Positions 1 through 44,828 of a stretch of DNA of 64,000 nucleotides are shown here, in pieces. A program made the position numbers and the translations under genes. Under the pieces are notes generated by a model that saw only the letters and a list, made by a program, of their open reading frames with translations, was not told the DNA's origin and made no database searches. The stretch covers positions 1,612,001 through 1,676,000 of the forward strand of contig NC_089396.1 of assembly GCF_003171515.1 (NCBI RefSeq), read 5' to 3'. The first letter of the stretch is position 1; each line of letters starts with the position of its first letter. This DNA comes from Pyrenophora tritici-repentis (lineage: Eukaryota > Ascomycota > Dothideomycetes > Pleosporales > Pleosporaceae).

Positions 1-833
1 GTGACCTGTGATAAGGTAAGTCCATGTCAATTTGTGAAAACCAGGCAATACATACATGATGAGCAGACTGATTTGGCACAGCAGATTAGCTTGTAGGAGT
101 CAAAGGCCAGTTGGTTGCAAAGGGCGCAGAAAAAGTTCTTCGGGAAGACTGTCGTGGATAGCGAGCTGGGTACATGATTAGTATTGATATAGTCTCTCTT
201 GTATCATTACACATACAGAGCAAGCTCCCTGAGCTCGTCAGCGAGCGGGGCCGCCTTCGGGTCTGCTGCGGGGTTGGCCATGGCGACGCTTTGCGGGATC
301 GCGACTTCGGTAAGGCTGCCGCGTAGGACACAAGAACCAGCAGATGCGCCGCAGCTCTATTCCATTAAAAGAATACTGGGTATCGAGAAAGAAGAGACAA
401 GAAGAAAAGCAGGCGAGGCAATCGCTCGGTGCAGACACAGACAGGGTTGATTGCAGTCGCGGTCGATGTGTTTGCGGAGTGACAGCTAAGTGATGTCGCG
501 GAAGTTTTCTGGAAGTCGCGACCAACCAAGCGACTGGTCTGTGCGTTAGAACGCTAGTGATTTGTCACGTGTGTCAAACACCCCTCGTTTCCAAGCTTCA
601 GCTGCCACTCTGCAGCATTGTCGTCATAATAACCTTTCGGAGCGTTGAACACCACCTAAGCCTTCTAATTTAGGCCCAGCAAGTGCTGCGCGGGGTGAGA
701 CCATTGTGGCGCTAATGCGGTTGTGGCTTAGCCGGACCCTTGTCAATGTCAGCGTCATCGCTATCGGCACTGGGCATGGCAATGGCATCCCTTGAAAGCT
801 AACAAGTCCCGTTCCGTACCTTTGCCCACGAAA
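1..833. other. Intergenic, 5' flank of hydrolase gene
   Basis: No convincing gene is visible. Short open frames on both strands overlap each other and match no family I recognise. The last part should contain the promoter of the hydrolase gene that starts at 834, but no clear TATA or CCAAT element stands out. Confidence 0.5.
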
Positions 834-5853: not shown

Positions 5854-6130
5854 TCGATCTGCCCACCCCAAAACCGAATCTACAAGATTCACAATTCTCC
5901 CCTCTTTCCACTCACGGTGAAAAAGTAATATATCGAAACTTCTCCGTTAGCAACGTCTCTCATAAGCACCAAATACCTTTCTAGAACCGTTTTACATTCA
6001 GCCACGTCGAAAAGACTTCCCGAAAAAATACCCTAGCAACCCTATCAGCATAAATCTGACCTATGCAAACTCTTCAGATTACATGACTAACTTCCGGTAA
6101 TCGATATGGTGCTCATAGTCATACTCTATC
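5854..6130. other. Short spacer before hAT element
   Basis: Non-coding. Its last eight bases (6123-6130, ACTCTATC) are the left target-site duplication of the hAT element. Confidence 0.7.
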
Positions 6131-9287: not shown

Positions 9288-9484
9288 TGTTGGAAGGCCT
9301 TGTACGATCGTACGGTGAATAACAGTAGCTAAGGTAATCTTGTGTATTGGTATTCTGGTGTATGATGATTCTACGAATGTGGGGGCTACGAAGGTATACA
9401 TAGCGTTGGGTCCGAGTTGGGCCGAAGTAGGATCGAGGCGGTACATTGGGCCTTATTAGGCGACACACCGTGTGTATGCCGACA
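9288..9484 (-). repeat. Copia LTR, downstream (3') copy
   Basis: 197 bp, TGTTGGAAGG...TGCCGACA on the plus strand, apparently identical to 15093-15289. A purine-rich tract at 9485-9500 (read on minus) is the candidate polypurine primer. Confidence 0.95.
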
Positions 9485-9578
9485 CTGGCAATCTTTTCTT
9501 ATTGTAACGACTGATGTAAGGAAAAACGGGTCTTCTAAAAAGGGCACAATGAGAGGGATTCCAAATAGGCATATGTGC

Positions 9579-12500: not shown

Positions 12501-14729
12501 CGGGGTGGGTGCGTTCAAGACCTCAAATTTGATCTTTCCAATCTGTGTCGATACATGTGCGGTTCCAATCGAAGTAGTGACGCTTCCTTTGCCAAATTGC
12601 ACAGATGCGTTTCCAGCAGTAGACGTATCTAGAGTTACGGTGGGGTCCTCAGTTTGGAGCGCCCAGAACTGCTCCTTTCCGGCTGTCGATACATTTGAGG
12701 CACCAGTGTCAGGAAGAATGCCTTGGTACGTGATTCGCGAGTATCGATCCTCGATAAGGAACTGCGTTGCGGGCGTAATAGGCTCCTTGCACCTGTAGAC
12801 GTCTTCTCCAGTCACGTGGTGCAAAAAGGCCTGATCTGTGAGGTACTTAACTGCCAATCTTTGGTCCTCATCATCTTCGTCTTGCTCCTCTAGGAAGAAC
12901 TGGTCGACTTCTTCCCCCTCGTACGCGACGAGAAATGTGCTAAACTCCATTTGCTCTCCCGTAATCGCGCAGTGTGTGATGTACTGCGCTTTTGAGCGTT
13001 TTCTTTCTTCAAGCGTGTGGTTTGTGGACCAACAGCCTGTCTTGCCGCAGACGTAACATTTCTTGTCGATTTGTGTGTTGACTCCAGAGCGGTGCTGAAG
13101 CCCACCGCGTCCGCGGGTGAATCCGCTGCGTCCACCGCGAGGGTTGTAATTCCCTCGCAATCTTCCAGAGCTGTTGTTGTTGTACCGACGATCCAAGTAG
13201 TACTGGCTATCCGTATCCGCCTCAGTGAAGTTGACGGAGACGGTCATGGCGAGTGAGTTTTCGATTGACGATCGCAGATCTCCAAACAGAACCTCGCATT
13301 CTAGAGACGGCTTGTAGAGTGCCATCTCGAGCTCCTTCACGCCTCGGCATGCTGTGATTACAGTCGTTCGGAGCGCGTATTCTCCCATGTACTGCTGTCC
13401 AAGTGCTCTTTGACACAATTGGAGCTTGTCCAGCATGATGTCAAGGACCTCGTGGAGGTTCTTTTCGGGGTTCTCCCTGCGGACTTTGACAAACGATGTC
13501 GTCGTCCAGTCCGCGTAGTAATGGCCGTGGTTGACGTCTGTGTCGAAGTGGTTCTTGAGCTTTGTGTAGGCAGTCAAGAACGTATCCATCCGCTGATCGA
13601 CGAAGTGGAGGTAATACTCCTCTGCGCGGCCGTCGAGAATCCGTGGAAAGACTGCATGGAACTGCCCTGGCTCGATGTCTGCGTGATAACAGATGCTGTA
13701 GAAGATCTTCAATTTATCGTCTAGGAGGTCGTACGGCTTTCCCGTATACTTTTTGTCTCGGTCCCACATTTTCACGAAGACATTGATCGTCTTAGGATCC
13801 AGTTTCTCATTGCCAAACTCGATTGGTGGAACTGCCTTGTACGGGTCTGTTTCACCAGAGGGCACAATTGGGGGAACGCTCAGTCCCTTCGGACGTTGCG
13901 GGTATGCTGGTGTATACTCGCGGAATCGGTCGAAGTTGTTGTAGGTGAGGGGAGGTTGCTGACTTTGGACGCGCTGATAGGCTGGCTGCGGTGCGGATTC
14001 AGTTGTCTCTACAGGCTGGCTTCGGATTGGTTGGTTTTGGGCTTTCTCAATCGTTTTTGCTAGCTGGTCCTGAATCTGTTGTTCTTCCTCAACGGTCTCC
14101 TGTCGTCCTTGCACACGGGCGTGGGTCTGGTCTTGATCGCGGGTTTGCCGACTGTCTACGTCTCGGCCTCTTGTCCTTACAGGCGTTTGGGTTCGGCTCT
14201 GGGCCTGGCTTGATAATCTCCTGTCTGTGGACTGTACTGATCCTTCACTGCGTTGTTGCCGTAGTGCCCGCTCTTGCAACATGTGCGCAGCTGATCGTGT
14301 GTCAAACACAGCCGACTGGAATACGTCCTGAGGCCATTCTAGGTACTCCTCCATGCGTAATAACCTAGCTAGAGACTCACTAGGTGCCATATTAATACGG
14401 CCAGTATACACTCCCTTAAAGCGGAGGATCCGCTTTAGTTCCTTTGTGTATATTGGCTGGGCACGTAGGAACATTGCCTCTGTCCATCCTTCAAAGTCCT
14501 GACGGAACTCCCAAAAGAGTTCTTCATCTGCTGTTGGTCGATCTGTATAGTCCGCAATCGCACGCGCAATGTACGTTGTTGCTGTAGTAATCCCTACCTC
14601 ATCGTCTGGAGCTTCAACGTTGTCCTCCCAAATCTCTGGATCGATGTGATGCCATTCTCTTGGTTTTATGTTTGTGGTCCCTAGTAGCGCCTCTAGTGTG
14701 GGTACCACTCTTCTACTACTGCTCGCCAT
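9579..14729 (-). CDS. Copia gag-pol polyprotein, intact
   Basis: An uninterrupted frame of about 1716 aa from ATG 14727-14729 (start MASSSRRVVPT). The frame is open ~46 codons further upstream but without another ATG. Order from the N-terminus: gag-like region rich in Gln/Arg; zinc knuckle (CYVCGKTGC..., near 555); aspartic protease DTGASN near 672; integrase HHCC zinc domain (HRRFGH ... CHHCQ, about 800-845) and DDE core with LVDVM and THDAGTNF; reverse transcriptase with an active site reading QTDD near 1390 instead of the usual YVDD; RNase H with FTDGSF near 1538 and the ASETYG motif. It copies element RNA into DNA inside virus-like particles and integrates it. No stop or frameshift is present, so the copy may be autonomous; the Gln at the active-site motif is unusual but known to vary in fungal copia elements. 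Confidence 0.95.
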   Translation of the reverse strand: MASSSRRVVPTLEALLGTTNIKPREWHHIDPEIWEDNVEAPDDEVGITTATTYIARAIADYTDRPTADEELFWEFRQDFEGWTEAMFLRAQPIYTKELKRILRFKGVYTGRINMAPSESLARLLRMEEYLEWPQDVFQSAVFDTRSAAHMLQERALRQQRSEGSVQSTDRRLSSQAQSRTQTPVRTRGRDVDSRQTRDQDQTHARVQGRQETVEEEQQIQDQLAKTIEKAQNQPIRSQPVETTESAPQPAYQRVQSQQPPLTYNNFDRFREYTPAYPQRPKGLSVPPIVPSGETDPYKAVPPIEFGNEKLDPKTINVFVKMWDRDKKYTGKPYDLLDDKLKIFYSICYHADIEPGQFHAVFPRILDGRAEEYYLHFVDQRMDTFLTAYTKLKNHFDTDVNHGHYYADWTTTSFVKVRRENPEKNLHEVLDIMLDKLQLCQRALGQQYMGEYALRTTVITACRGVKELEMALYKPSLECEVLFGDLRSSIENSLAMTVSVNFTEADTDSQYYLDRRYNNNSSGRLRGNYNPRGGRSGFTRGRGGLQHRSGVNTQIDKKCYVCGKTGCWSTNHTLEERKRSKAQYITHCAITGEQMEFSTFLVAYEGEEVDQFFLEEQDEDDEDQRLAVKYLTDQAFLHHVTGEDVYRCKEPITPATQFLIEDRYSRITYQGILPDTGASNVSTAGKEQFWALQTEDPTVTLDTSTAGNASVQFGKGSVTTSIGTAHVSTQIGKIKFEVLNAPTPFLLCLKDMDRLHVYFNNTTDQLVQGKATFPVIRKWGHPWFHLSKAERARVFLTETELRRLHRRFGHPAVERLIRLLKRAGHEDVDERLLREIQTFCHHCQAHDPAPRRFKFRLKDDREFNFEILVDVMYLSGKPVLHVIDSATTFNGARFLPSMSAKDTWEALRLLWIDTYQGPPDIVTHDAGTNFASVEFRSEAKIMGITCKQVPTEAHWSIGKVERYHAPLRRAYEILRTELDTGTSDAAVLQMAVKAVNDTAGPDGLVPTLLVFGAYPRISMDSPPSPSITHRAEAIQKAMRALRKASAEHAVSNALGTRNGPTTDGVLSLPLQSEVMVWREKNGWQGPYRVIDMKDHDVTVDMINGPTTFRSTVVKPYYRDLTTAIDGADQGTGGSPTTDEAIADEPPLPVPPAEANQAAQPRKRGRPPGSKNKPKVQYLSKKEEDDYALAVKLRNDGVINVPGAPFEASDQKEIDDLVGRGVFSFELFDPTLHGGYRIFKSRMVREVKGKTMVPYEKSRLVVQGYNDEGKHEILTQSPTIQRASQRLILALAPALLDEGMVVELRDITQAYPQAQTELFRTVLAHLPKELIKKYPKGTIIRVIKPLYGIAEAGVHWFATYQGHHCKELDMATSTYDPCLLITNGRREAFGIVGLQTDDTLAIGTPAFSGAEDAALQKANFRAKPKERLSKEVSLEFNGCTLTLRGDTILLTQKGQGAKIEIIDPKAANRAQKYMEQRARGAYIASICQPEASFDLSAAAQIQQPKDTEYVKLNRRLQWQSESIQRGLRYVPLDLATAKLVVFTDGSFANNQDLSSQLGYLLILANESSRQDSTFDIRGNVIHWSSTKCKRVTRSVLASETYGMVSGVDIAIAILTTLKIITGRLGLPPIPLIVCTDSYSLYECLVKLGTTAEKRLMIDIMALRQSYERREITEIRWINGEDNPADAFTKATPNRALERFIESNKLSIRVEGSVQRPTE

Positions 14730-15092
14730 TCCTACTGCCGGTGTCCTGGCTACCGGTGCTCTTTCCGATGATGTTCTCTCTCCTGCTATTGTGTTCTTGT
14801 TGACGCTTGTTGCGCTAGCTGCGTTCGCTAGAGATGCGTCGGTGGTCGTGGGTTGTACACGGGTCAAATCTCAACCGGTCGGTTGGCGCGTGTATAGACG
14901 GCGTCTTGGAACGCTTCTGATACGGCTGTAACGGTCGGTCGCTAGCCACGAACGACGCCTGATATAGCTAACAGTGAGCTTAGCATAGATAACTCCGCCT
15001 TGCTGATATAGGCAATCTAGGGAACGCGCGGGGTAAAGAATCTATCTCTTCTTAACCTAACTGTCTGTGACTGCCGTGCAATCACTGATCAG

Positions 15093-15289
15093 TGTTGGAA
15101 GGCCTTGTACGATCGTACGGTGAATAACAGTAGCTAAGGTAATCTTGTGTATTGGTATTCTGGTGTATGATGATTCTACGAATGTGGGGGCTACGAAGGT
15201 ATACATAGCGTTGGGTCCGAGTTGGGCCGAAGTAGGATCGAGGCGGTACATTGGGCCTTATTAGGCGACACACCGTGTGTATGCCGACA
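15093..15289 (-). repeat. Copia LTR, upstream (5') copy
   Basis: 197 bp, apparently identical to 9288-9484. As the upstream LTR of a minus-strand element it should hold the promoter. Confidence 0.95.
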
Positions 15290-15491
15290 CAGGGGCTCTC
15301 CAGAATACTGTACTTGGGATTATCATGGTATGCCCCTGTCCATGACGACGCCTGTGCGGGTACTTGGAAACCTTCCTGCAATTGGACTGTGTCTCAACCA
15401 GCACGAGATCACTCGCAATCACCCAAAAGAGGGCAAAGAGGCAACCGCCAAGACACATAACTGCCTGAAGGAGCTTCACACACATTCGAGT
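15290..15491 (+). other. Left flank of LINE cluster, possibly part of an interrupted frame
   Basis: About 200 bp of unique sequence between the copia LTR and the first LINE. Its right end holds the LINE target CACACATTCGAGT (15479-15491). One forward frame (…HEITRNHPKEGKEATAKTH…) is open into the target. If the whole LINE cluster is removed, that frame continues after 28302 as WVNVPWALLRESETPKYDH and stays open to a TAG near 28471. I do not recognise the product. Confidence 0.4.
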
Positions 15492-15623
15492 CACCGAACA
15501 CCAACTTTTAAGGAATTTGGGACCCTTATAAAATTATACGATTTTTACATCATTTTAACGGCACGGCGGCCTGTAACTACCTCAGCTAAATAACCGCTTT
15601 CTGCTCTCGCGGAGGTGGTTAGA

Positions 15624-17292
15624 ATGGCTAATGTAGAAACTCCAGAGAGGGCGCCACGGAGTGCCCAACCCCCCCATACACGATCAGAGGAGCCTGAGAG
15701 CCCTATTAATACTGACCTGCGCGGCAACAAGAGGAGGCAGCGAGCACATACTCGTGCTGAACCTCCCATCGGTAGCACTGCGCCCACTTCCTACAATCAA
15801 GCTGTCTCTGAAGCGGTCCGCCAGCGGATTCAGGCAGCCCAGAAAGCTACAAACCTTCGCCACTCCATCATAACGGATCTAGCGACAGCTGTCGACAGAT
15901 GCCTTGGGAAGTACACCGACCCAGACGGAGCCCGTGTGGCTAAGGACCTCCAACAGAAGGTGCTAAGGGCTATTGACACCTCCCTAATCACGCCCCTAAT
16001 CACGCCCCCAAACTCGGGGAGCGACTCTGACACTACGCACCGCTCCTGGGCGGACGTAGCTAGGACCCCAAAAAATCCAACCCCCCAGCAAGGGGGCCGC
16101 TACGACGAAAGCGGCCACGGCTGCCCCAAAGCAGCTAGCTCAAACTCCTAGGCGACCTCTAAACACTGACAACCGCATCCTTATAGCGGTTGGAGCGGAG
16201 GCTCGGCTCCAACGGGCATCACCATTTGCGGCCCGCATGGCTATTGTAAAGGCGATCAAGGAAATTACCCCCTCCGACATACCTACGGCAAAACATATCA
16301 AGACTGGCTGGGCGATTACGCCCCGCAACGACAAAATCAAGGCCCTGCTTATGGGGCAGGAGAATCGCGAACTTATGATCCGAGCGGTAGAGGGCGAGAG
16401 CGCAAGACTACCTGAACGATGGGTGAACTATGCAGTCCAGGGCGTAGAAAGCTCATACCGCACTATCACAGGGGAAAGTATACCCACCACAATAGACGAT
16501 ATAGTCAGCGAAGCTCTGTCCCAGACAGGGATCGAACCGGCGAGCTGCCGGCCCTCCAGACATGGACCCACGGAGGGAAGGACAACCTGGATTATATCTT
16601 TCACCAGACCCGTACGATCGTTTCGCCTATTTGGGACGGGCGACTACGCGCACGAGATAAAGAAGAACTCACCTGCAATGCTGCACGACCCAGGCTGCCT
16701 AGGGTACTGCAAAACCAGCCGCTGCACAAGGCCAGCCCGCTGCACGACATGCAGCAAAACAACGGCAACTCACCAGGGACCACACGGAGAACAATGCAAA
16801 GACACACCAAAGTGCGCCAACTGCCACGGCCCATTTCCAGCAACCCACGACAAGTGCCCAGCAGCCCCAACGAGGGCGAACGGCCGACTCATCCAACCCA
16901 CAAAGGGGGAACTAAAAGTCATTAGGGAGGCGGGTGACCGTGCTTCTGAGGCAATGCAGCCAGCTAGAGGAAGACAGACAGGCAGCACGGTCGAAACCTC
17001 CATTGAAATCACGGACGGCGACATAGCTAATACTACTGAGCCTGTGGGAACACCTACGGACGCAAGTAAAAGAAGCCGACAAGACGTAAACAACCTAAAC
17101 ACAGCCACTGTTAGAGAGCCCGCAACCACCCTAGGGACTAGGAGGTCTAAGAGAACAGCTGCAACTACGCAAGACCTCAACCTAGCGCGAATGTCTGCTA
17201 GAAGCGTGCAGCCTAGCACCGCTGACCAAGACCCTAATACGTCATCGTCTGAGCACGCTGACACTGAAATGAGCCTCGGATCTAGTGCGTAA
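15624..17292 (+). pseudogene. LINE copy 1 ORF1 (gag-like), frameshifted
   Basis: The first part from ATG 15624 (MANVETPERAP) stops at 16151. The remainder lies in another frame that is open from before 16080 to TAA 17290-17292. The switch falls near an A6 run at 16070-16075: reading past it one base forward joins SWADVARTPK to a Lys/Ala-rich stretch and on to AARMAIVKAIK. The second part carries clustered zinc knuckles (CLGYC...C, CTTC...H...C, CANCHG...H...C, near 16695-16860), typical of LINE ORF1 nucleic-acid-binding proteins. The same switch exists in copy 2, so it is either a lesion of a shared ancestor or a programmed +1 frameshift. The stop TAA overlaps the ORF2 start in TAATG. Confidence 0.85.
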
Positions 17293-20200
17293 TGAGGGCA
17301 CAACCCGCAAATTCACCCGGCGAAACCACGCCACACCGACACAGACAAATGCAGGTATGCTGGGTGAATGTGGCCAGAAGCTCGCCTTGCCACATTACAG
17401 CCTTAGAACGTGCATGGGAAGCAGACATAGACATAGTATGCATCCAAGAACCCTTTACTCTCACTGGAACCCGGACCTCTACACACCCAGGATTCCATAT
17501 GATATCGCCAGTGATAAGCTGGAACAACCCCACAACGTGGGGAACTGACCGACCACGGGTGCTCACCTATACCCGTAAGAGCCCAAATATAAGGGCTACT
17601 CTTATACACCCACGCATCAGCCGGGATGTGCTATGGATCGAGGCCAACGGCTACCGCATATTGAATGTTTATAGGCAGCCACAGAATGACTCGACATTTC
17701 AATACCTCACAGCTTTAACGCCACCCCGTAACTGCCTTATAGGGGGTGACTTAAACGCCCGCCATGAACTTTTTGAGCCCGGCTCCACGTCGGCCAATAG
17801 GGGGGCAGAGATCGCCCGCTGGGCCACTCAGAACGACATACCCTACATCGGCGAGGCAGGTAACCCAACACATCGGGCGGGACACGTGCTAGACGTATCC
17901 TTCTCAAATATACCCTTCGCTAGAACGACAGTCCGCGAAGATATGTATACAGGGTCAGACCATTTCACCCTAGTGACTGTGTCCTTCCAAGCCGAGGGAG
18001 AGCGGTGCTAGAACAGCATCACTACCGGGTCCACGAGAGAAACATAGATAGGTTTGCCGGGCTAGTTCAACTCTACACAGTAGGCGTACAGCCAATTAGC
18101 AATAGCGCCCCAGCGGACGTAATCGACGCAAGCATAGCTAGAATCACCCAAGCTATAGGAGATGCAATGCACGCGGCGGGAACACCAAATAGAGAAAAAG
18201 GCCACTCCGCCCCATGGTGGACAGAGGACTGTAGAGTGGCGTATAAGCGGCATATCCAGGAAAAGTCGGACTATGGCCAATCCCCCTCAGAAGCCACCCG
18301 TGCGTTCCTAGCTACGGTACGAAAAGCCAAGAGAACGTACTGGCAGCAGCGCATAGACGGCTGTAATAACGACAAAGATCTATACAAGCTAGTAGGCTGG
18401 CATAAACTATCATTCGACCAACGGGACACCCCACTTGTAATCGAAGGTAGGACAATCACAGCACCACTCGAGAAAGCTGAGGCACTTAGAGAGGCAATCC
18501 TCGACCGTTTTTCGGCGGAGGACGACCTCCTAGAACCACCGCCTCTTGACAACGACCCGCAAACCACGCCACTACCATGGGACACATACATATCGATGGA
18601 GGAGACTGAACGCTACGTGATTGGAGTATCTAGCACCTCCCCAGGACCCGATCAGGTGACCGTCCGACTCCTAAAGGCATGCTGGGAACACATTAGACAC
18701 CTAGTGCTAGGCATCTACCGGGCGTGCATGGAACAAGGCCACTACCCAGCCGCCTGGAAGACGGTAGAAGTGGCCATGATACCCAAAGTCGGGAAGAAGG
18801 ATAAGTCCTCACCCAGATCAATGAGACCAATTGCCCTATCGTCCTGTCTAGGGAAGGGACTCGAGCGTATCATAGCAAGGCGCATAGCACACACAGCTAT
18901 GGCTTTTGACATCCTAAGCCCACAGCACGGTGGAGCGCTGCCAAAACGCTCTGCGATGGACCTGGCGACCGCATTCACACACGACGTGGAGATGGCTTGG
19001 TCAAGACACGAGCATGTCTCTATGCTCACGTTAGACGTCCAAGGGGCGTTTGACGCGCTACTGAAAAACAGGCTACTACACCGAATGCGGCAACAAGGGT
19101 GGCCACCCCTACTCCGGAAATTTATCCAGAACTTCCTGTCGGAAAGGAGGGTGCGAGTACGCCTAGGCAATGTCACTACACCTGTACATCGAGTGGCCTG
19201 CGGCACCCCGCAGGGATCGCCGCTATCACCGGTCCTATACACCCTATACCTAGCTGAACTACTCAACCAGGACCGAAAACTCCGGTTCGGGTATGCCGAC
19301 GACATCAACCTATACCGGGTCTCCCACTCTTTAGACGAGAACGTCGCACTGCTAGCAGAGGACCTCAAATCTATCAATGAATGGGGAGCTGCGAACAAGA
19401 TCACGTTTGCACCAGAGAAACGGGAGCTGATCCACCTCACGCGCCAGAAAGGACTACATGCGCCGCCAATCCAATTGGAAGATCAAACAATTCACCCTAT
19501 AGCCCCTGCGCAGGGGGAAGCCAGACAGCGCTGCGCTGGCTTGGGGTGTGGTTTGATAGGGGACTAACTTTCAAGAAGCACGTCGCAGAAAGGGCGGCGC
19601 AAGCTAGGAAAGTAGCGAACCATCTCCGGAGCCTCGCCAACACAGCCCACGGCCCTCCAGCAGGATCGCTACGCAAGGCAGCCATAACATGTATCCTGCC
19701 CATACTACTATACGGAGCCGAAACATGGTACGAGGGCAGGACGAAGAACCCACGAATTGCAAGGGTTTCCCGTAAACCCACGGTCAGCACTAGGGTAGGC
19801 TGGCACCTAACCACGATAGATCAGGCACTAGTAGCAGCCACGAAGGCAATCCTCCCTGCGTGGAGGACAACACCAAACGCAGTACTGCTAAGAGAAGCTG
19901 CGATGCCGTCGGCACAGGTGGCGCTGGAGGAGGCTAAGCTCCGCTTTGCGGTTCACCTACGCACGATAGACGACAAGCACCCACTTACTAATAGAACTAC
20001 ACTGCCACTAGTCATACGAGGACGCGCAGCGGGCAACCGACGGATACCAAGATCGAAGGTTCAGCGCGTAGCACAACTGCTACCCGCCACACCCCGAAAC
20101 GTCCTAGCCAGCCCTCACTTTTCAGACGGGTCGAGGCAGGATCCAACGCAAGGGCAAGGAAAGGACATTGCTGCCCAGAATTTCACCATCTGGTGGGAGT

Positions 20201-21099
20201 CTCTTGGACAGGAGACAATCACTGTCTTCTCAGACGGGTCTGAACAACAAATCAACGGTACAAGGGTGGTCACTTACGGGTACGCTATATACCAGGGCCA
20301 GGCCGCCGTGGCGACTGGACAAGGTTCACTAAATGCCCTTAGCCACGTCTTCGATGCGGAGGCTATAGGCGCGTGCAGAGGACTCAAACACGCACTACAA
20401 CTCTCACTGCCTAGCCAGAGGGAGATCGTACTTTGCATAGACAGCACTTCGGTAATATGGGGCATACGCGGAACCGCCCCTACCTCCTCCCAATGGGCGT
20501 TCCTCCAAATCCATGGAGCTATGGAGGCCTACAACGTGAAAACGCGGTGGGCGCCGGGACACATGAAGATTGTTGGAAACGAACTCGCCGACCAGCTGGC
20601 TGACAACGAGGCCAAAGACCCGCACCAGCCATACGGCATGGCCGCCTCCCCCACAAGATCCGGTATACGAACAGTAGGCCGCCGCCTCCTCGAACATACA
20701 AGGGACACTTGGTGGAAGGATAAGAGCAGTAGGCTATCAGCATGGTACACGCAATGGCAGCTGCCATACGATACTAGGCGCACGCCCGCAGCGCTATGGC
20801 TACTCCGAAGGATACTCGCGAAAGTCCTTATGATACGCTCAACGCATGGCGACTTTGAATGGTACCACCGAAAATTCAACCACGAGGATACCTCGAATTG
20901 CCTATGCGGCAGGCCCAAGACGCCAGAACACCTAGTGTTCTGCAAGAGAGCCACAACACACTTCAAGAAGTGGCCTCTACGCCCCATCGTGCCCCCTCGC
21001 ACAAGACAGGAAGGCCTAGCGTACCTCGCGCAATTAATAGACCAGCCACAAGAGTTCGAGACCTTCGTGAAGGTAACGAACTCCTTCTATGACGAGTGA
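17292..21099 (+). pseudogene. LINE copy 1 ORF2: endonuclease, reverse transcriptase, RNase H; frameshifted
   Basis: Endonuclease part 17292-18011 (ATG overlapping the ORF1 stop), with IQEP, GGDLNARH and GSDHF motifs of the exonuclease-endonuclease-phosphatase fold. The reverse transcriptase continues in another frame from about 17985 (first residues LEQHHYRVHERN), with the PIALSS, GTPQGSPLSP and FGYADD motifs. A second break lies at a G run (19513-19517, five Gs): copy 2 has six, and its frame is open. After the break the frame runs to 21099 with RNase H (VFSDGSEQ, DAEAIGA, CIDSTSV) and a C-terminal CLCG...PEHLVFC motif. The endonuclease nicks target DNA and the RT copies element RNA at the nick. 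This copy could not make a continuous ORF2 protein. Confidence 0.9.
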
Positions 21100-21522
21100 T
21101 TTCTATTTTTGAATTTCACAAAGACCCGCTGAATTCCTTGGCATTATTCAGTGTAGGATTCGCGGCAAAACGCCGCATAGATGCCACAACCCACACGCTC
21201 TCTCTCAAACCTTTTATTATATCTCTAATTGCCTCTTGTTACTTTTTCGTTTCTCTCTCTAAAAAGCAGTTACTGTACTGCATCGATCAAAGGCGCAAGC
21301 CACGAAATACTAGAATATTGTAGGAAAACGGCTTCAAATGGCGGGAGTCCTTTTCACGAACATGTATATAGGCAGGACATCACTCCCCTTAGATACAAAA
21401 CACCTAGGAATAGGTTCCACGAGGCAAGTGCGACAGCACTATAAGACCACGGCGGGACCCGCCCGAATACCCTATGGGAGGTTACAGATAGGGCGTTAAA
21501 CCATAATCAACATCAACATCAA

Positions 21523-21539
21523 CCCAACTCGAATGTGTG
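21523..21539. repeat. 17-bp palindrome spacer, inverted target sequence
   Basis: Reads CCCAACTCGAATGTGTG, the exact reverse complement of CACACATTCGAGTTGGG, the target rebuilt from 15479-15491 and 27576-27588. It separates the ATCAAC tail of copy 1 from the reversed tail of copy 2. Confidence 0.9.
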
Positions 21540-21966
21540 TTGTTGATGTTGATTGTTGATTGTGGTTTAACGCCCTATCTGTAACCTCCCATAGGGTATT
21601 CGGGCGGGTCCCGCCGTGGTCTTATAGTGCTGTCGCACTTGCCTCGTGGAACCTATTCCTAGGTGTTTTGTATCTAAGGGGAGTGATGTCCTGCCTATAT
21701 ACATGTTCGTGAAAAGGACTCCCGCCATTTGAAGCCGTTTTCCTACAATATTCTAGTATTTCGTGGCTTGCGCCTTTGATCGATGCAGTACAGTAACTGC
21801 TTTTTAGAGAGAGAAACGAAAAAGTAACAAGAGGCAATTAGAGATATAATAAAAGGTTTGAGAGAGAGCGTGTGGGTTGTGGCATCTATGCGGCGTTTTG
21901 CCGCGAATCCTACACTGAATAATGCCAAGGAATTCAGCGGGTCTTTGTGAAATTCAAAAATAGAAA

Positions 21967-24900
21967 TCACTCGTCATAGAAGGAGTTCGTTACCTTCACG
22001 AAGGTCTCGAACTCTTGTGGCTGGTCTATTAATTGCGCGAGGTACGCTAGGCCTTCCTGTCTTGTGCGAGGGGGCACGATGGGGCGTAGAGGCCACTTCT
22101 TGAAGTGTGTTGTGGCTCTCTTGCAGAACACTAGGTGTTCTGGCGTCTTGGGCCTGCCGCATAGGCAATTCGAGGTATCCTCGTGGTTGAATTTTCGGTG
22201 GTACCATTCAAAGTCGCCATGCGTTGAGCGTATCATAAGGACTTTCGCGAGTATCCTTCGGAGTAGCCATAGCGCTGCGGGCGTGCGCCTAGTATCGTAT
22301 GGCAGCTGCCATTGCGTGTACCATGCTGATAGCCTACTGCTCTTATCCTTCCACCAAGTGTCCCTTGTATGTTCGAGGAGGCGGCGGCCTACTGTTCGTA
22401 TACCGGATCTTGTGGGGGAGGCGGCCATGCCGTATGGCTGGTGCGGGTCTTTGGCCTCGTTGTCAGCCAGCTGGTCGGCGAGTTCGTTTCCAACAATCTT
22501 CATGTGTCCCGGCGCCCACCGCGTTTTCACGTTGTAGGCCTCCATAGCTCCATGGATTTGGAGGAACGCCCATTGGGAGGAGGTAGGGGCGGTTCCGCGT
22601 ATGCCCCATATTACCGAAGTGCTGTCTATGCAAAGTACGATCTCCCTCTGGCTAGGCAGTGAGAGTTGTAGTGCGTGTTTGAGTCCTCTGCACGCGCCTA
22701 TAGCCTCCGCATCGAAGACGTGGCTAAGGGCATTTAGTGAACCTTGTCCAGTCGCCACGGCGGCCTGGCCCTGGTATATAGCGTACCCGTAAGTGACCAC
22801 CCTTGTACCGTTGATTTGTTGTTCAGACCCGTCTGAGAAGACAGTGATTGTCTCCTGTCCAAGAGACTCCCACCAGATGGTGAAATTCTGGGCAGCAATG
22901 TCCTTTCCTTGCCCTTGCGTTGGATCCTGCCTCGACCCGTCTGAAAAGTGAGGGCTGGCTAGGACGTTTCGGGGTGTGGCGGGTAGCAGTTGTGCTACGC
23001 GCTGAACCTTCGATCTTGGTATCCGTCGGTTGCCCGCTGCGCGTCCTCGTATGACTAGTGGCAGTGTAGTTCTATTAGTAAGTGGGTGCTTGTCGTCTAT
23101 CGTGCGTAGGTGAACCGCAAAGCGGAGCTTAGCCTCCTCCAGCGCCACCTGTGCCGACGGCATCGCAGCTTCTCTTAGCAGTACTGCGTTTGGTGTTGTC
23201 CTCCACGCAGGGAGGATTGCCTTCGTGGCTGCTACTAGTGCCTGATCTATCGTGGTTAGGTGCCAGCCTACCCTAGTGCTGACCGTGGGTTTACGGGAAA
23301 CCCTTGCAATTCGTGGGTTCTTCGTCCTGCCCTCGTACCATGTTTCGGCTCCGTATAGTAGTATGGGCAGGATACATGTTATGGCTGCCTTGCGTAGCGA
23401 TCCTGCTGGAGGGCCGTGGGCTGTGTTGGCGAGGCTCCGGAGATGGTTCGCTACTTTCCTAGCTTGCGCCGCCCTTTCTGCGACGTGCTTCTTGAAAGTT
23501 AGTCCCCTATCAAACCACACCCCAAGCCAGCGCAGCGCTGTCTGGCTTCCCCCCTGCGCAGGGGCTATAGGGTGAATTGTTTGATCTTCCAATTGGATTG
23601 GCGGCGCATGTAGTCCTTTCTGGCGCGTGAGGTGGATCAGCTCCCGTTTCTCTGGTGCAAACGTGATCTTGTTCGCAGCTCCCCATTCATTGATAGATTT
23701 GAGGTCCTCTGCTAGCAGTGCGACGTTCTCGTCTAAAGAGTGGGAGACCCGGTATAGGTTGATGTCGTCGGCATACCCGAACCGGAGTTTTCGGTCCTGG
23801 TTGAGTAGTTCAGCTAGGTATAGGGTGTATAGGACCGGTGATAGCGGCGATCCCTGCGGGGTGCCGCAGGCCACTCGATGTACAGGTGTAGTGACATTGC
23901 CTAGGCGTACTCGCACCCTCCTTTCCGACAGGAAGTTCTGGATAAATTTCCGGAGTAGGGGTGGCCACCCTTGTTGCCGCATTCGGTGTAGTAGCCTGTT
24001 TTTCAGTAGCGCGTCAAACGCCCCTTGGACGTCTAACGTGAGCATAGAGACATGCTCGTGTCTTGACCAAGCCATCTCCACGTCGTGTGTGAATGCGGTC
24101 GCCAGGTCCATCGCAGAGCGTTTTGGCAGCGCTCCACCGTGCTGTGGGCTTAGGATGTCAAAAGCCATAGCTGTGTGTGCTATGCGCCTTGCTATGATAC
24201 GCTCGAGTCCCTTCCCTAGACAGGACGATAGGGCAATTGGTCTCATTGATCTGGGTGAGGACTTATCCTTCTTCCCGACTTTGGGTATCATGGCCACTTC
24301 TACCGTCTTCCAGGCGGCTGGGTAGTGGCCTTGTTCCATGCACGCCCGGTAGATGCCTAGCACTAGGTGTCTAATGTGTTCCCAGCATGCCTTTAGGAGT
24401 CGGACGGTCACCTGATCGGGTCCTGGGGAGGTGCTAGATACTCCAATCACGTAGCGTTCAGTCTCCTCCATCGATATGTATGTGTCCCATGGTAGTGGCG
24501 TGGTTTGCGGGTCGTTGTCAAGAGGCGGTGGTTCTAGGAGGTCGTCCTCCGCCGAAAAACGGTCGAGGATTGCCTCTCTAAGTGCCTCAGCTTTCTCGAG
24601 TGGTGCTGTGATTGTCCTACCTTCGATTACAAGTGGGGTGTCCCGTTGGTCGAATGATAGTTTATGCCAGCCTACTAGCTTGTATAGATCTTTGTCGTTA
24701 TTACAGCCGTCTATGCGCTGCTGCCAGTACGTTCTCTTGGCTTTTCGTACCGTAGCTAGGAACGCACGGGTGGCTTCTGAGGGGGATTGGCCATAGTCCG
24801 ACTTTTCCTGGATATGCCGCTTATACGCCACTCTACAGTCCTCTGTCCACCATGGGGCGGAGTGGCCTTTTTCTCTATTTGGTGTTCCCGCCGCGTGCAT

Positions 24901-25062
24901 TGCATCTCCTATAGCTTGGGTGATTCTAGCTATGCTTGCGTCGATTACGTCCGCTGGGGCGCTATTGCTAATTGGCTGTACGCCTACTGTGTAGAGTTGA
25001 ACTAGCCCGGCAAACCTATCTATGTTTCTCTCGTGGACCCGGTAGTGATGCTGTTCTAGCAC
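21967..25062 (-). CDS. LINE copy 2 reverse transcriptase-RNase H, open frame
   Basis: An uninterrupted frame of 1031 codons, starting at a GTG context (LEQHHYRVHERN...). There is no ATG at this point, so it is probably expressed as a continuation of the endonuclease frame. It contains RT motifs (PIALSSCLGKGLERI, LDVQGAFDAL, GTPQGSPLSPVLY, FGYADDINLY), a connecting region, RNase H (VFSDGSEQ, VFDAEAIGACRG, LCIDSTSV, WAPGHMKIVGNELAD) and a C-terminal CLCG...EHLVFC zinc-like motif. Because copy 1 is frameshifted, this is the only copy in the window with a continuous RT-RNase H frame. Confidence 0.9.
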   Translation of the reverse strand: MLEQHHYRVHERNIDRFAGLVQLYTVGVQPISNSAPADVIDASIARITQAIGDAMHAAGTPNREKGHSAPWWTEDCRVAYKRHIQEKSDYGQSPSEATRAFLATVRKAKRTYWQQRIDGCNNDKDLYKLVGWHKLSFDQRDTPLVIEGRTITAPLEKAEALREAILDRFSAEDDLLEPPPLDNDPQTTPLPWDTYISMEETERYVIGVSSTSPGPDQVTVRLLKACWEHIRHLVLGIYRACMEQGHYPAAWKTVEVAMIPKVGKKDKSSPRSMRPIALSSCLGKGLERIIARRIAHTAMAFDILSPQHGGALPKRSAMDLATAFTHDVEMAWSRHEHVSMLTLDVQGAFDALLKNRLLHRMRQQGWPPLLRKFIQNFLSERRVRVRLGNVTTPVHRVACGTPQGSPLSPVLYTLYLAELLNQDRKLRFGYADDINLYRVSHSLDENVALLAEDLKSINEWGAANKITFAPEKRELIHLTRQKGLHAPPIQLEDQTIHPIAPAQGGSQTALRWLGVWFDRGLTFKKHVAERAAQARKVANHLRSLANTAHGPPAGSLRKAAITCILPILLYGAETWYEGRTKNPRIARVSRKPTVSTRVGWHLTTIDQALVAATKAILPAWRTTPNAVLLREAAMPSAQVALEEAKLRFAVHLRTIDDKHPLTNRTTLPLVIRGRAAGNRRIPRSKVQRVAQLLPATPRNVLASPHFSDGSRQDPTQGQGKDIAAQNFTIWWESLGQETITVFSDGSEQQINGTRVVTYGYAIYQGQAAVATGQGSLNALSHVFDAEAIGACRGLKHALQLSLPSQREIVLCIDSTSVIWGIRGTAPTSSQWAFLQIHGAMEAYNVKTRWAPGHMKIVGNELADQLADNEAKDPHQPYGMAASPTRSGIRTVGRRLLEHTRDTWWKDKSSRLSAWYTQWQLPYDTRRTPAALWLLRRILAKVLMIRSTHGDFEWYHRKFNHEDTSNCLCGRPKTPEHLVFCKRATTHFKKWPLRPIVPPRTRQEGLAYLAQLIDQPQEFETFVKVTNSFYDE

Positions 25063-25775
25063 CGCTCTCCCTCGGCTTGGAAGGACACAGTCACTAGGGT
25101 GAAATGGTCTGACCCTGTATACATATCTTCGCGGACTGTCGTTCTAGCGAAGGGTATATTTGAGAAGGATACGTCTAGCACGTGTCCCGCCCGATGTGTT
25201 GGGTTACCTGCCTCGCCGATGTAGGGTATGTCGTTCTGAGTGGCCCAGCGGGCGATCTCTGCCCCCCTATTGGCCGACGTGGAGCCGGGCTCAAAAAGTT
25301 CATGGCGGGCGTTTAAGTCACCCCCTATAAGGCAGTTACGGGGTGGCGTTAAAGCTGTGAGGTATTGAAATGTCGAGTCATTCTGTGGCTGCCTATAAAC
25401 ATTCAATATGCGGTAGCCGTTGGCCTCGATCCATAGCACATCCCGGCTGATGCGTGGGTGTATAAGAGTAGCCCTTATATTTGGGCTCTTACGGGTATAG
25501 GTGAGCACCCGTGGTCGGTCAGTTCCCCACGTTGTGGGGTTGTTCCAGCTTATCACTGGCGATATCATATGGAATCCTGGGTGTGTAGAGGTCCGGGTTC
25601 CAGTGAGAGTAAAGGGTTCTTGGATGCATACTATGTCTATGTCTGCTTCCCATGCACGTTCTAAGGCTGTAATGTGGCAAGGCGAGCTTCTGGCCACATT
25701 CACCCAGCATACCTGCATTTGTCTGTGTCGGTGTGGCGTGGTTTCGCCGGGTGAATTTGCGGGTTGTGCCCTCAT
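25056..25775 (-). CDS. LINE copy 2 AP-like endonuclease
   Basis: 239 codons from the ATG overlapping the ORF1 stop (TAATG). Motifs IQEP, GGDLNARH, HVLDVSFSN and GSDHFTLV mark the LINE endonuclease of the exonuclease-endonuclease-phosphatase family. It ends in a stop overlapping the start of the RT frame by 7 nt, in a different frame; the same break is present in copy 1. Confidence 0.88.
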   Translation of the reverse strand: MRAQPANSPGETTPHRHRQMQVCWVNVARSSPCHITALERAWEADIDIVCIQEPFTLTGTRTSTHPGFHMISPVISWNNPTTWGTDRPRVLTYTRKSPNIRATLIHPRISRDVLWIEANGYRILNVYRQPQNDSTFQYLTALTPPRNCLIGGDLNARHELFEPGSTSANRGAEIARWATQNDIPYIGEAGNPTHRAGHVLDVSFSNIPFARTTVREDMYTGSDHFTLVTVSFQAEGERC

Positions 25776-27443
25776 TACGCACTAGATCCGAGGCTCATTT
25801 CAGTGTCAGCGTGCTCAGACGATGACGTATTAGGGTCTTGGTCAGCGGTGCTAGGCTGCACGCTTCTAGCAGACATTCGCGCTAGGTTGAGGTCTTGCGT
25901 AGTTGCAGCTGTTCTCTTAGACCTCCTAGTCCCTAGGGTGGTTGCGGGCTCTCTAACAGTGGCTGTGTTTAGGTTGTTTACGTCTTGTCGGCTTCTTTTA
26001 CTTGCGTCCGTAGGTGTTCCCACAGGCTCAGTAGTATTAGCTATGTCGCCGTCCGTGATTTCAATGGAGGTTTCGACCGTGCTGCCTGTCTGTCTTCCTC
26101 TAGCTGGCTGCATTGCCTCAGAAGCACGGTCACCCGCCTCCCTAATGACTTTTAGTTCCCCCTTTGTGGGTTGGATGAGTCGGCCGTTCGCCCTCGTTGG
26201 GGCTGCTGGGCACTTGTCGTGGGTTGCTGGAAATGGGCCGTGGCAGTTGGCGCACTTTGGTGTGTCTTTGCATTGTTCTCCGTGTGGTCCCTGGTGAGTT
26301 GCCGTTGTTTTGCTGCATGTCGTGCAGCGGGCTGGCCTTGTGCAGCGGCTGGTTTTGCAGTACCCTAGGCAGCCTGGGTCGTGCAGCATTGCAGGTGAGT
26401 TCTTCTTTATCTCGTGCGCGTAGTCGCCCGTCCCAAATAGGCGAAACGATCGTACGGGTCTGGTGAAAGATATAATCCAGGTTGTCCTTCCCTCCGTGGG
26501 TCCATGTCTGGAGGGCCGGCAGCTCGCCGGTTCGATCCCTGTCTGGGACAGAGCTTCGCTGACTATATCGTCTATTGTGGTGGGTATACTTTCCCCTGTG
26601 ATAGTGCGGTATGAGCTTTCTACGCCCTGGACTGCATAGTTCACCCATCGTTCAGGTAGTCTTGCGCTCTCGCCCTCTACCGCTCGGATCATAAGTTCGC
26701 GATTCTCCTGCCCCATAAGCAGGGCCTTGATTTTGTCGTTGCGGGGCGTAATCGCCCAGCCAGTCTTGATATGTTTTGCCGTAGGTATGTCGGAGGGGGT
26801 AATTTCCTTGATCGCCTTTACAATAGCCATGCGGGCCGCAAATGGTGATGCCCGTTGGAGCCGAGCCTCCGCTCCAACCGCTATAAGGATGCGGTTGTCA
26901 GTGTTTAGAGGTCGCCTAGGAGTTTGAGCTAGCTGCTTTGGGGCAGCCGTGGCCGCTTTCGTCGTAGCGGCCCCCTTGCTGGGGGGTTGGATTTTTTGGG
27001 GTCCTAGCTACGTCCGCCCAGGAGCGGTGCGTAGTGTCAGAGTCGCTCCCCGAGTTTGGGGGCGTGATTAGGGGCGTGATTAGGGAGGTGTCAATAGCCC
27101 TTAGCACCTTCTGTTGGAGGTCCTTAGCCACACGGGCTCCGTCTGGGTCGGTGTACTTCCCAAGGCATCTGTCGACAGCTGTCGCTAGATCCGTTATGAT
27201 GGAGTGGCGAAGGTTTGTAGCTTTCTGGGCTGCCTGAATCCGCTGGCGGACCGCTTCAGAGACAGCTTGATTGTAGGAAGTGGGCGCAGTGCTACCGATG
27301 GGAGGTTCAGCACGAGTATGTGCTCGCTGCCTCCTCTTGTTGCCGCGCAGGTCAGTATTAATAGGGCTCTCAGGCTCCTCTGATCGTGTATGGGGGGGTT
27401 GGGCACTCCGTGGCGCCCTCTCTGGCGTTTCTACATTAGCCAT
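25775..27443 (-). pseudogene. LINE copy 2 ORF1 (gag-like), same frameshift as copy 1
   Basis: ATG at 27441-27443 (MANVETPERAP). The first frame ends at 26916 and the second, with the CCHC fingers, runs to 25775. The frame switch sits at the T6 run 26992-26997, the complement of the A6 run in copy 1. Confidence 0.85.
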
Positions 27444-27575
27444 TCTAACCACCTCCGCGAGAGCAGAAGCTGGTTATTTAGCTAAGGTAGTTACAGGCCG
27501 CCGTGCCGTTAAAATGATATAAAAATCGTATAATTTTGTAAGGGTCCCAAATTCCTCAAAAGTTGGTGTTCGGTG

Positions 27576-27589
27576 CATTCGAGTTGGGT
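27576..27589. repeat. Target-site duplication, left of LINE copy 3
   Basis: CATTCGAGTTGGGT, identical to 28289-28302. It is also the 5' flank of copy 2. Confidence 0.9.
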
Positions 27590-27896
27590 TGATGTTGATG
27601 TTGATTATGGTTTAACGCCCTATCTGTAACCTCCCATAGGGTATTCGGGCGGGTCCCGCCGTGGTCTTATAGTGCTGTCGCACTTGCCTCGTGGAACCTA
27701 TTCCTAGGTGTTTTGTATCTAAGGGGAGTGATGTCCTGCCTATATACATGTTCGTGAAAAGGACTCCCGCCATTTGAAGCCGTTTTCCTACAATATTCTA
27801 GTATTTCGTGGCTTGCGCCTTTGATCGATGCAGTACAATAACTGCTTTTTAGAGAGAGAAACGAAAAAGTAACAAGAGGCAATTTAAGATACAATG

Positions 27897-27959
27897 TGTT
27901 AGAAAGGTATCTATACCAATCAACGCAGTGGCAAAGAGTGTTCACTTTTTGTCTCAACA
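27897..27959 (+). repeat. TRIM 5' LTR
   Basis: 63 bp, identical to 28195-28257. Confidence 0.88.
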
Positions 27960-27971
27960 GGTTATGAGCCC
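27960..27971 (+). other. TRIM primer-binding site, half-tRNA initiator Met
   Basis: GGTTATGAGCCC is an exact 12-nt complement of the initiator tRNA-Met anticodon stem-loop as known from yeast. Its position immediately after the LTR sets the element's orientation as plus. Confidence 0.75.
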
Positions 27972-28039
27972 GGGGCCGCTTTCAGCGCATCAGCAGGTTC
28001 GTGATGGACTGCTTGTTGGGTGAGTGACCACAGCCGATT

Positions 28040-28147
28040 TGCCAGAGCAAGAGGGCCAGCGCCAAGCAGGGCCAGCGCCAGAGCTAGAGCAAGAGGGCCA
28101 GAGCAAGAGGGCCAGCGCCGAGTAGGGCCAGCGCCAGAGCCAGAGTC
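28040..28147 (+). repeat. TRIM internal degenerate tandem repeats
   Basis: Repeated units of the type AGAGCAAGAGGGCCAGCGCC in slightly varying form, GC-rich, filling the middle of the TRIM interior. Confidence 0.7.
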
Positions 28148-28194
28148 GCAAACCGCTCGCATTACTTTGTCCCCCTGCCTTGATTGCGGGGGTG

Positions 28195-28257
28195 TGTTAG
28201 AAAGGTATCTATACCAATCAACGCAGTGGCAAAGAGTGTTCACTTTTTGTCTCAACA
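28195..28257 (+). repeat. TRIM 3' LTR
   Basis: 63 bp, identical to the 5' LTR, followed by the duplication CAATG. Confidence 0.88.
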
Positions 28258-28288
28258 CAATGAAAGTTTTAAAAGAGAGCGTGTGGGT

Positions 28289-28302
28289 CATTCGAGTTGG
28301 GT
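28289..28302. repeat. Target-site duplication, right of LINE copy 3
   Basis: CATTCGAGTTGGGT, identical to 27576-27589. It marks the right edge of the whole nested cluster. Confidence 0.9.
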
Positions 28303-30224
28303 GAACGTGCCTTGGGCTCTCTTGCGTGAATCTGAGACACCTAAATATGACCACATTTTGGTACTATGCCCACTTCGAATAATGGTGGTCGGCACTCTCA
28401 TGATACTCTCTCAACGAGTGGCGGGAGGGTATCAAGCCCAGAGTCGAGTTAGCGCAGCGAGTTTCTCATAGCGCCTCGGTATGTGCGACGCATCTTTGCT
28501 TGCCATATACGAACGGGCCATATATGACGATCAGCGACTCGCAAGGTAAGCCTTTTACTGCCGCAAAGTCAAGAACTCAAGGACTTCCGTATCTAGTAGC
28601 ACCAGTGTAGAAAAGCTCGGGGCTGTTCCCATCATGCCATACCTCTCGCCATAGTCTAGGTGTCGAGACTACTACTACTATTGGGTCGATTTCCAGCCCA
28701 GGGCTTTGAAGTATGGATGCAGAGCATAGCGCGTCGATAGTGATGGCGTGGTGGGAGACAGGCACATCCGAGACAAGATGAGCGTCCGCTACAAAATAGG
28801 TGTCCTCCATGGGTGCGCGGAATAGCATCCAGTGATCGAGACGAGCGGCGGAGGACAATGCCCACACCCGCCACCAACGCCTCATGGCCGCATATAGTAA
28901 CGGTGCCAGCTGCACTCGGCCCGAAGCCTCGCCTTTCGCTGCCGCCATTCCTGTACGCATTTTCAAGCGGTACGACCATCTCCCTGCCCATCGAACAACT
29001 TCGCAAAGAATAAAGTGTCAAAAATCGTCGACATTGTCCCAACAAGATTGGGTACGGCCTCTACACTGCACCTTAGCTTCTAATCAAGATCTATTGAGAC
29101 CATGCATTTACTAGCAGCACGTGTCCCCCTGGTATGTTAAGCCAACTGGCAAGTTACTCGAAGTTTTTGCAAATATGTCGCTCCTTTCTCGTTACGTTAG
29201 GAATTGATACAGATCCTCTAACTGATCTATCAAAATGTTGTGATTGTCTCAACCGGCACTGGTTTTCTACGTAAGCCGCATCGTAGCGCGAGCCCGAAGG
29301 AGGTGCTAAAAATAGTGTTCTGATGGAGATGATTGTCGGGTTGGGTGGGTGAGATGCGAGAGATTCCAATGTACCGGCGCCGGTACCTAGCAGGTGATTA
29401 TGTAATGGCGCACGGGTCGGCCCCTAGCCGAACCAGCTCCAAACAGGAACAGGCCTCTTCTCGGCAAACCTGCCGGCTACAGGTGGTTCTATGGACTATC
29501 TTTATCAACACCTATCACATCCCTTTTCAGTGACGCATGAGAACCAGGCGTAAGGCTGCGCCGACTGCGAGAAATGCCACGAATTCCTTCATCAAGACCA
29601 TAGCTCCTTTGCCATTGTCTAGTAGAACCAAGAAGAGAAGTCTACATAGCGGCCAGTTGTTTTCCAAAGAAGCCCTGGGATACCTTTTTTTTCTAATTAC
29701 CCGACCTCAATCAACTAGTAGGAAGGTGTTCGATTCAGTCTATTATTAATTGACCAGCGATAAGGCTGAAGCACTACAACTGCTTCTCTGCCATGAGTCT
29801 CGATTCAGATCGTCAATGTCTGGCAAGGTTTAGAACGTAGTTATGCCGTCGAGTATAATTTGATCAATTAGTAGCAATCTTTCCATGCGGTTTCACCCGA
29901 ATCATCGTATTTCTCTAGGCAGTTTGCTTCTCATCAGGTACAAGCTTTTCCTGTGTCTTCACTCTCTGTGTAAGGAACCTACCGTTATGAGACATCAGGC
30001 ATGTTTGCATCGGTGAATGTTTGGCGCAGTGGCGGTCGTGCTTGAGTGTCACAGACGCATTTGTTGTGGGAACTGACGTCATTTCTCGCGTACCTGCATT
30101 AGGTACCCCCTCTCCGTCATCGAAGTCTACCATACCATGATTCTTCGTCTCCCACGCTTCAGCTGCTCCCTCCAAATTGCCAAACCCTGAACAAATCTCG
30201 GGAGACTTTTATTACAACTCCGCC
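28303..30224. other. Intergenic region with unresolved open frames
   Basis: The first ~170 bp may be the right part of a frame interrupted by the LINEs. Two overlapping minus-strand frames around 28577-29045 look partly protein-like but match nothing I know. The rest is non-coding as far as I can see; 30100-30224 is the upstream region of the kelch gene. Confidence 0.4.
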
Positions 30225-44820: not shown

Positions 44821-44828
44821 ATCGTGTA

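What the first reader, a model, noticed from the sequence alone, without database searches (positions are those of the whole stretch)
15479..27589. 12-kb LINE palindrome with an inverted target-site spacer: footprint of recombination between inverted retrotransposons
Two full-length LINEs (15492-21522 plus, 21540-27575 minus) lie tail to tail with a 17-bp spacer. Each LINE lacks a direct target duplication: copy 1 is flanked by CACACATTCGAGT on the left and CCCAACTCGAATG on the right, and copy 2 shows the mirror problem. The spacer CCCAACTCGAATGTGTG is the exact reverse complement of the target sequence. If the spacer plus adjoining LINE 3' halves are flipped, copy 1 regains CACACATTCGAGT on both sides and copy 2 regains CATTCGAGTTGGG on both sides. 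The simplest account is that two LINEs inserted in opposite orientation into the same site, then a crossover between the inverted copies flipped the tiny middle. Near-perfect 6-kb palindromes are normally unstable, so its survival is notable.
Basis: partly seen in the sequence, partly recalled or inferred. Interest (0 to 1): 0.9.

Follow-up and report, generated by a model that had tools for sequence, protein, structure and literature searches.

The report
Flipped palindrome of two fungal LINEs
Two nearly identical copies of a jumping gene sit tail to tail in a wheat-fungus genome, and a 17-base tag between them points the wrong way, which suggests that the two copies recombined and flipped the middle.

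Summary
Two full-length LINEs lie tail to tail (15492-21522 plus, 21540-27575 minus) around a 17-bp spacer that is the exact reverse complement of the target. The genome is Pyrenophora tritici-repentis M4, contig C7.

(1) A third, 5'-truncated LINE (27589-28288, minus) lies just outside with a normal direct duplication of the same target, so one site was used three times. (2) Un-flipping the middle restores direct duplications of at least 14 bp for both copies; 14 bp is the commonest length in the family. Of 32 elements tested, 22 have direct repeats, 8 none, and only these two inverted ones. (3) The family prefers AGYC about 29 bp before its 5' junction; this target has GCC at -29 on both strands, which can explain convergent insertion. 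(4) The arms differ by 8 substitutions in the outer 150 bp, none in the next 5.85 kb, and share a 2-bp frameshift not seen in other aligned copies: probably arm-to-arm copying.

A second LINE-headed palindrome (contig C2) shows the same pattern. Crossover and template switching cannot be told apart here. An assembly error in the spacer is not excluded, though the published mean read length (15 kb) exceeds the palindrome. Both processes are known; this example is unusually legible.

The parts
15463..15465 (+). GCC of the target motif for copy 1 (TGCC; GCC starts 29 bp before the 5' junction)
   Evidence: family preference (AGYC starting at -32..-28 in 13 of 18 selected targets); here TGCC, so one mismatch
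15479..15491 (+). left target duplication of copy 1, CACACATTCGAGT (14 bp with the A at 15478)
15492..21522 (+). LINE copy 1, full length (arm 1)
   Evidence: endonuclease, reverse transcriptase and RNase H domains
17976..17980 (+). region of a 2-bp (TG) insertion in copy 1, shared with copy 2, that breaks the endonuclease-RT frame (place approximate, LINE position about 2485-2488)
19512..19513 (+). G-run one base shorter than in copy 2; the same one-base difference recurs in other copies, so it may be a sequencing error
21523..21539 (+). 17-bp spacer CCCAACTCGAATGTGTG, the inverted target sequence
21540..27575 (-). LINE copy 2, full length (arm 2)
27576..27588 (+). target duplication CATTCGAGTTGGG shared by copy 2 (5' side) and copy 3 (3' side)
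27589..28288 (-). LINE copy 3: 5'-truncated, 3' end at 27589, interrupted by a small repeat element
27895..28257 (.). about 363-bp element with identical 65-bp terminal direct repeats inserted in copy 3; four other places match at 100% (rounded) over 361-363 bp
28289..28301 (+). right target duplication of copy 3, CATTCGAGTTGGG
28315..28318 (-). AGCC target motif on the other strand for copies 2 and 3 (GCC at -29)
   Evidence: searches show it one base further out because my cut there included one LINE base

Best explanation
An APE-type LINE with a loose target motif (AGYC, about 15 bp upstream of a 14-bp target duplication) used one site on contig C7 three times. Because the site has the motif position on both strands, outward of a 17-bp core, copies went in convergently: copies 2 and 3 on the minus strand, copy 1 on the plus strand, giving a tail-to-tail pair around the core. 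Exchange between the inverted copies (crossover, or a double template switch at a replication fork) then inverted everything between the exchange points, including the core. Arm-to-arm copying made the arms identical from about position 151 to the tails and left the outermost 150 bp and the tails different. Shown: the arrangement, the three insertions, the wrong-way core in this assembly, the motif preference, the arm identity pattern. Inferred: order of events, type of exchange, and that the identity comes from copying between arms.
For: Target duplications: of 32 elements tested, 22 have a direct match of at least 10 bp (11 of them exactly 14), 2 (copies 1 and 2) an inverted match of 14 bp, 8 neither. 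Un-flipped, copy 1 gains the direct repeat ACACACATTCGAGT and copy 2 ACCCAACTCGAATG or longer. Motif: 13 of 18 selected targets against a shuffle mean of 0.8, maximum 6 in 20,000; GCC at -29 on both sides of the core. Arms: 8 substitutions in positions 1-150 and 0 in 151-6000, where the 91 pairs of 14 full-length copies have a median of 30. The 12 other pairs with 5 or more substitutions in 1-150 have 19-37 in 616-6000; all 12 include copy 2. A 2-bp insertion and one substitution are shared by these arms and absent from the other aligned copies (17 and 22 others cover the columns). Palindrome C2:406412-416028: all 18 substitutions lie in the first 615 bp of 4.08-kb arms that share a hAT insertion.
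Against: Dispersed copies with only 1-2 interior substitutions exist (L046/L047, L031/L032/L037), so arm identity alone could mean recent sisters. Dispersed copies also share frame breaks (L035 and L046 share four one-base indels, L055 shares one of them), though those are one-base differences at recurring places that may be read errors. Copy 1's first 501 bp match a contig C9 copy at 100%, so its 5' mosaic exists outside the palindrome. The motif on the copy 1 side is TGCC, not AGYC, and 5 of 18 selected targets lack the motif. Spacer orientation rests on one assembly polished with 100-bp reads.
Confidence: 0.68

Rival explanations
1. Assembly error: the three insertions are real, but the assembler laid the 17-bp centre in the wrong orientation, and correction or polishing made the arms look identical beyond about 150 bp.
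For: An inverted repeat with a short middle can be laid either way if no read spans an arm (general knowledge). Polishing used 100-bp pairs, which could separate only the outermost bases from unique flanks, and the differences lie just there and beside the spacer.
Against: M4 PacBio reads averaged 15 kb and there was an optical map, so an arm or the whole 12.1 kb can be spanned. Other full-length copies kept 11-48 substitutions in most pairs. The C2 pair switches at 615 bp and shares a hAT insertion, which polishing cannot make.
Confidence: 0.14
2. Sister copies without arm-to-arm copying: both LINEs came from one recent source that already had the 2-bp frameshift, one with a different 5' end, and only the centre was flipped.
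For: Near-identical dispersed sisters exist, 5' mosaics occur elsewhere (L058), and dispersed copies share frame breaks.
Against: It needs a source with this frameshift, seen in no other aligned copy, to move twice into one site. The C2 pair needs a similar coincidence plus a hAT at the same base in both arms.
Confidence: 0.15
3. Inverted duplication of one LINE at a break (fold-back or break-induced replication), with no second insertion.
For: Large palindromic duplications can arise from short inverted repeats in yeast mutants (PMC7999016, passages).
Against: The outer flanks differ, each arm ends exactly at the LINE 5' end, each outer flank carries a 14-bp target repeat, and the outer 150 bp differ by 8 substitutions.
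Confidence: 0.03

Closest known systems
Yeast fragile site FS2 (inverted pair of 6-kb Ty elements, 280-bp spacer), as described in PMC7999016 (passages; the name FS2 is written there as fragile site 2)
   Same: two retrotransposons of about 6 kb in inverted orientation, close together
   Different: Ty elements are LTR elements (recalled); longer spacer; the passages mention no target duplication used as an orientation tag
Arm homogenisation and spacer inversion of short inverted repeats in S. cerevisiae, PMC8604942 (abstract and passages)
   Same: same two products, homogenised arms and inverted spacer; inversions described as reversible
   Different: short arms (10-16 bp in the passages seen) and spacers of a few bases in genes, against 6-kb arms and 17 bp here; direction there comes from strain phylogeny, here from target duplications
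Tad1-like non-LTR retrotransposons reported in P. tritici-repentis, PMC3538342 (passages)
   Same: fungal non-LTR elements of the same species
   Different: the passages seen describe no palindrome, target motif or stacks; that this family is the one meant there, and its clade, were not tested

Membership tests
APE-type non-LTR retrotransposon (LINE) | endonuclease plus reverse transcriptase domains | tested here: met
   Exo_endo_phos_2 7.1e-13 (copy 1), RVT_1 1e-24 and RNase_H 3.3e-06 (copy 2)
APE-type non-LTR retrotransposon (LINE) | fixed 3' tail and frequent 5' truncation | tested here: met
   truncated copies begin at various points and most share the ATCAAC-repeat tail; a few loci lack the 3' end instead
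APE-type non-LTR retrotransposon (LINE) | target-site duplication in direct orientation | tested here: met
   22 of 32 elements direct at 10 bp or more, 8 neither, copies 1 and 2 inverted
Tad1 clade | placement by RT phylogeny | not tested
   no tree built; the name comes from PMC3538342 passages and recall
Inverted-repeat spacer inversion | spacer is the exact reverse complement of its ancestral state, between homologous inverted arms | tested here: met
   ancestral state read from both outer flanks, in one assembly
Inverted-repeat spacer inversion | the other orientation seen in a relative | not testable with these tools
   only G000 was searched as DNA of this species
Palindrome with arm-to-arm gene conversion | arms more alike inside than other copies of the family, with sharp divergence at the outer ends | tested here: met
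   second pair. The pattern is met; that conversion made it is inferred

The most novel reading that the evidence does not exclude
This LINE builds recombination-active repeats by its targeting rule. Its motif lies outside the duplicated bases, so every insertion restores a usable target; one-sided sites grow into head-to-tail stacks, and sites with the motif on both strands grow into tail-to-tail palindromes, which then flip and homogenise. The target duplication is a built-in polarity tag that records each flip, so isolates could be read as a natural inversion-rate assay.
Probability: 0.3. Interest if true: 0.6.

Novelty: new member of a known kind. Interest (0 to 1): 0.45.

Why it matters
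A natural palindrome of 6-kb arms with a 17-bp spacer, whose spacer records its own orientation, would let inversion between retrotransposon copies be measured by genotyping isolates. It also shows how a LINE with a self-renewing target can stack copies and create palindromes in a fungus with little reported RIP. Assemblers may misplace such centres, so the case is also a check on long-read assemblies.

Tried and rejected
Considered and rejected: two-sided target-primed insertion at one double break (would put the 5' heads in the middle; here the tails are); twin priming (both copies are full length with tails inward); a same-orientation stack with one member inverted (would not leave a 14-bp duplication and the -29 motif spacing at copy 1's 5' junction); PacBio missed-adapter artefact (outer flanks differ and the arms end at the LINE head). 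These four rest on geometry, not on a separate test.

Led nowhere: arm comparison could not place the exchange point, because the interior is identical; tail variants are too common in the family to assign; the left junction with up to 2 mismatches occurs once in the genome, so no paralogous empty site was found that way. The titles and abstract starts listed by paper searches name no LINE palindrome with an inverted target duplication; these are capped lists (for example 20 of 188 papers and 15 of 1,543), so this is no proof of absence.

Caveats on counts: the 18 targets were picked by me from the 40 rows; 20 rows were dropped (12 as repeats of the same or a very similar target, 8 as junctions inside stacks) and the 2 window rows kept apart. 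Some kept targets are still alike, and the -32..-28 window was chosen after seeing the pattern. One search counts 7 and one search counts 8 substitutions in the first 150 bases because of a boundary; 8 is right. The C2 pair has 18 substitutions in the pairwise alignment and 19 in the multiple alignment. One search's joined empty site has one G too many; one search gives the corrected right-hand duplication and motif place.

The flip as such (best explanation or sister copies) stands at about 0.83.

Full report
What is there. The window is G000:C7:1612001-1676000. A 100% protein match named PtrM4_130270 on a contig of 2,765,034 bases, the length of C7, identifies Pyrenophora tritici-repentis isolate M4. 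The two LINE copies lie exactly as described, tail to tail, with a 17-bp spacer. The coding part carries endonuclease, reverse transcriptase and RNase H domains.

A third copy. Right of copy 2 come CATTCGAGTTGGG and then another LINE 3' end on the minus strand (27589 onward), interrupted by a small element with 65-bp terminal repeats (27895-28257). About 30 LINE bases follow, then CATTCGAGTTGGG again at 28289-28301. Copy 3 therefore has a normal direct duplication, and one site was used three times. The outer flanks give an ancestral site reading ...GAGCTTCACACACATTCGAGTTGGGTGAACGTGCC.... The 22-base left junction occurs once in the genome with up to 2 mismatches.

Why both orientations. In this family the commonest direct repeat is 14 bp (11 of 22), and AGYC starts at -32..-28 from the 5' junction in 13 of 18 selected targets (shuffle mean 0.8, maximum 6 in 20,000). 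At the window site GCC stands at -29 on the plus strand (TGCC) and at -29 on the minus strand (AGCC). The site can thus serve on both strands, with the motifs outward, which yields tails inward. Because the motif lies outside the duplicated bases, each insertion leaves a target intact (inference). Same-orientation stacks are common: I read at least 12 head-to-tail junctions by eye, against one tail-to-tail junction, the window's. These lists are lower bounds.

The flip. In one search, 32 elements were tested for repeats at their ends: 22 direct, 2 inverted (copies 1 and 2), 8 neither; several of the 8 have lost their 3' end. With the middle turned back, copy 1 gains ACACACATTCGAGT and copy 2 gains ACCCAACTCGAATG or longer as direct repeats. 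I found no single insertion that gives the present arrangement.

Arm identity. Copies 1 and 2 differ by 8 substitutions in positions 1-150 and none in 151-6000; the 91 pairs of 14 full-length copies have a median of 30 there. The 12 other pairs with 5 or more substitutions in 1-150, all including copy 2, have 19-37 in 616-6000. A 2-bp insertion near 2485 that breaks ORF2 and one substitution at 5313 are shared by these arms and by no other aligned copy covering them. Against this: some dispersed copies differ by only 1-2 interior substitutions; dispersed copies share one-base frame breaks, for example L035 and L046; and copy 1's first 501 bp match a contig C9 copy at 100%. Arm-to-arm copying is therefore likely but not proven.

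A second case. Among the listed copies, read by eye, opposite orientations within 20 kb occur at two places: this one and contig C2. At C2:406412-416028, arms of 4.08 kb (LINE 1-1623 followed by a hAT element) face each other across 1458 bp. All 18 substitutions fall in the first 615 bp; beyond are two one-base indels. A search with 801 bases of the hAT found one further copy, in other flanks, so its identical place in both arms points to copying or duplication between the arms. Unlike the window's pair, one arm there belongs to a head-to-tail stack and the two outer targets differ, so that pair did not arise at one two-strand target.

Assembly. M4 was sequenced with PacBio reads of 15 kb mean length (section 24), corrected, assembled with Canu from 18x of corrected reads and polished with 100-bp Illumina pairs (section 25), and optically mapped (passages) (PMC5913888). 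The reads can span an arm, so the orientation is probably right, but I could not see them.

Mechanism. Homogenised arms and inverted spacers are reported products of template switching in yeast (PMC8604942, passages), and an inverted 6-kb Ty pair is described as a fragile site (PMC7999016, passages). Crossover within paired arms would give the same inversion. I cannot separate the two. The low level of RIP reported for M4 (PMC5913888, passages) may help to explain why such a repeat persists (inference).

Verdict. The kind of event is known; this example is unusually legible.

Noticed in passing
L051/L052 (G000:C2:406412-416028): A second LINE-headed palindrome: 4.08-kb arms with a shared hAT element and a 1458-bp spacer made of pieces of other repeats; substitutions only in the outer 615 bp. 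The arms' homology ends exactly at the far hAT end, which hints at an aberrant hAT event.
   Followed up: partly
G000 C1, C2, C3 stacks, e.g. L035, L036, L040, L041, L057: Head-to-tail stacks of the same LINE separated by little more than the target duplication; two members of one stack (L041) are truncated at the same base.
   Followed up: partly
L031, L032, L039, L041, L046, L056, L061, L062 flanks: Several insertions fall in the same repeated target sequence at the same or nearly the same base, so the LINE has a favoured repeated host sequence; that sequence was not identified.
   Followed up: no
LINE position 2485: copies 1 and 2 of the window, and L050: The 2-bp insertion of both arms lies where L050 carries a 170-bp insert, so it may be the footprint of an excised small element.
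   Followed up: no
9288-15293: RVT_2 (Copia-type) element just left of the palindrome with identical 201-bp end repeats, so probably a recent insertion; its last 400 bases have 39 other listed matches at 100% (rounded) in the genome.
   Followed up: no
27895-28257: Small element with 65-bp terminal direct repeats inside copy 3; four other places match at 100% (rounded) over 361-363 bp and nine at 75-78%.
   Followed up: partly
LINE positions 1-600: Two 5' haplotypes exist in the family; the odd form of positions 1-150 was seen, among the 19 copies shown, only in copy 2 and L051, that is at outer ends of the two palindromes.
   Followed up: no
43402-44993: Three near-identical 165-nt direct repeats spaced 658 and 769 bp.
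   Followed up: no
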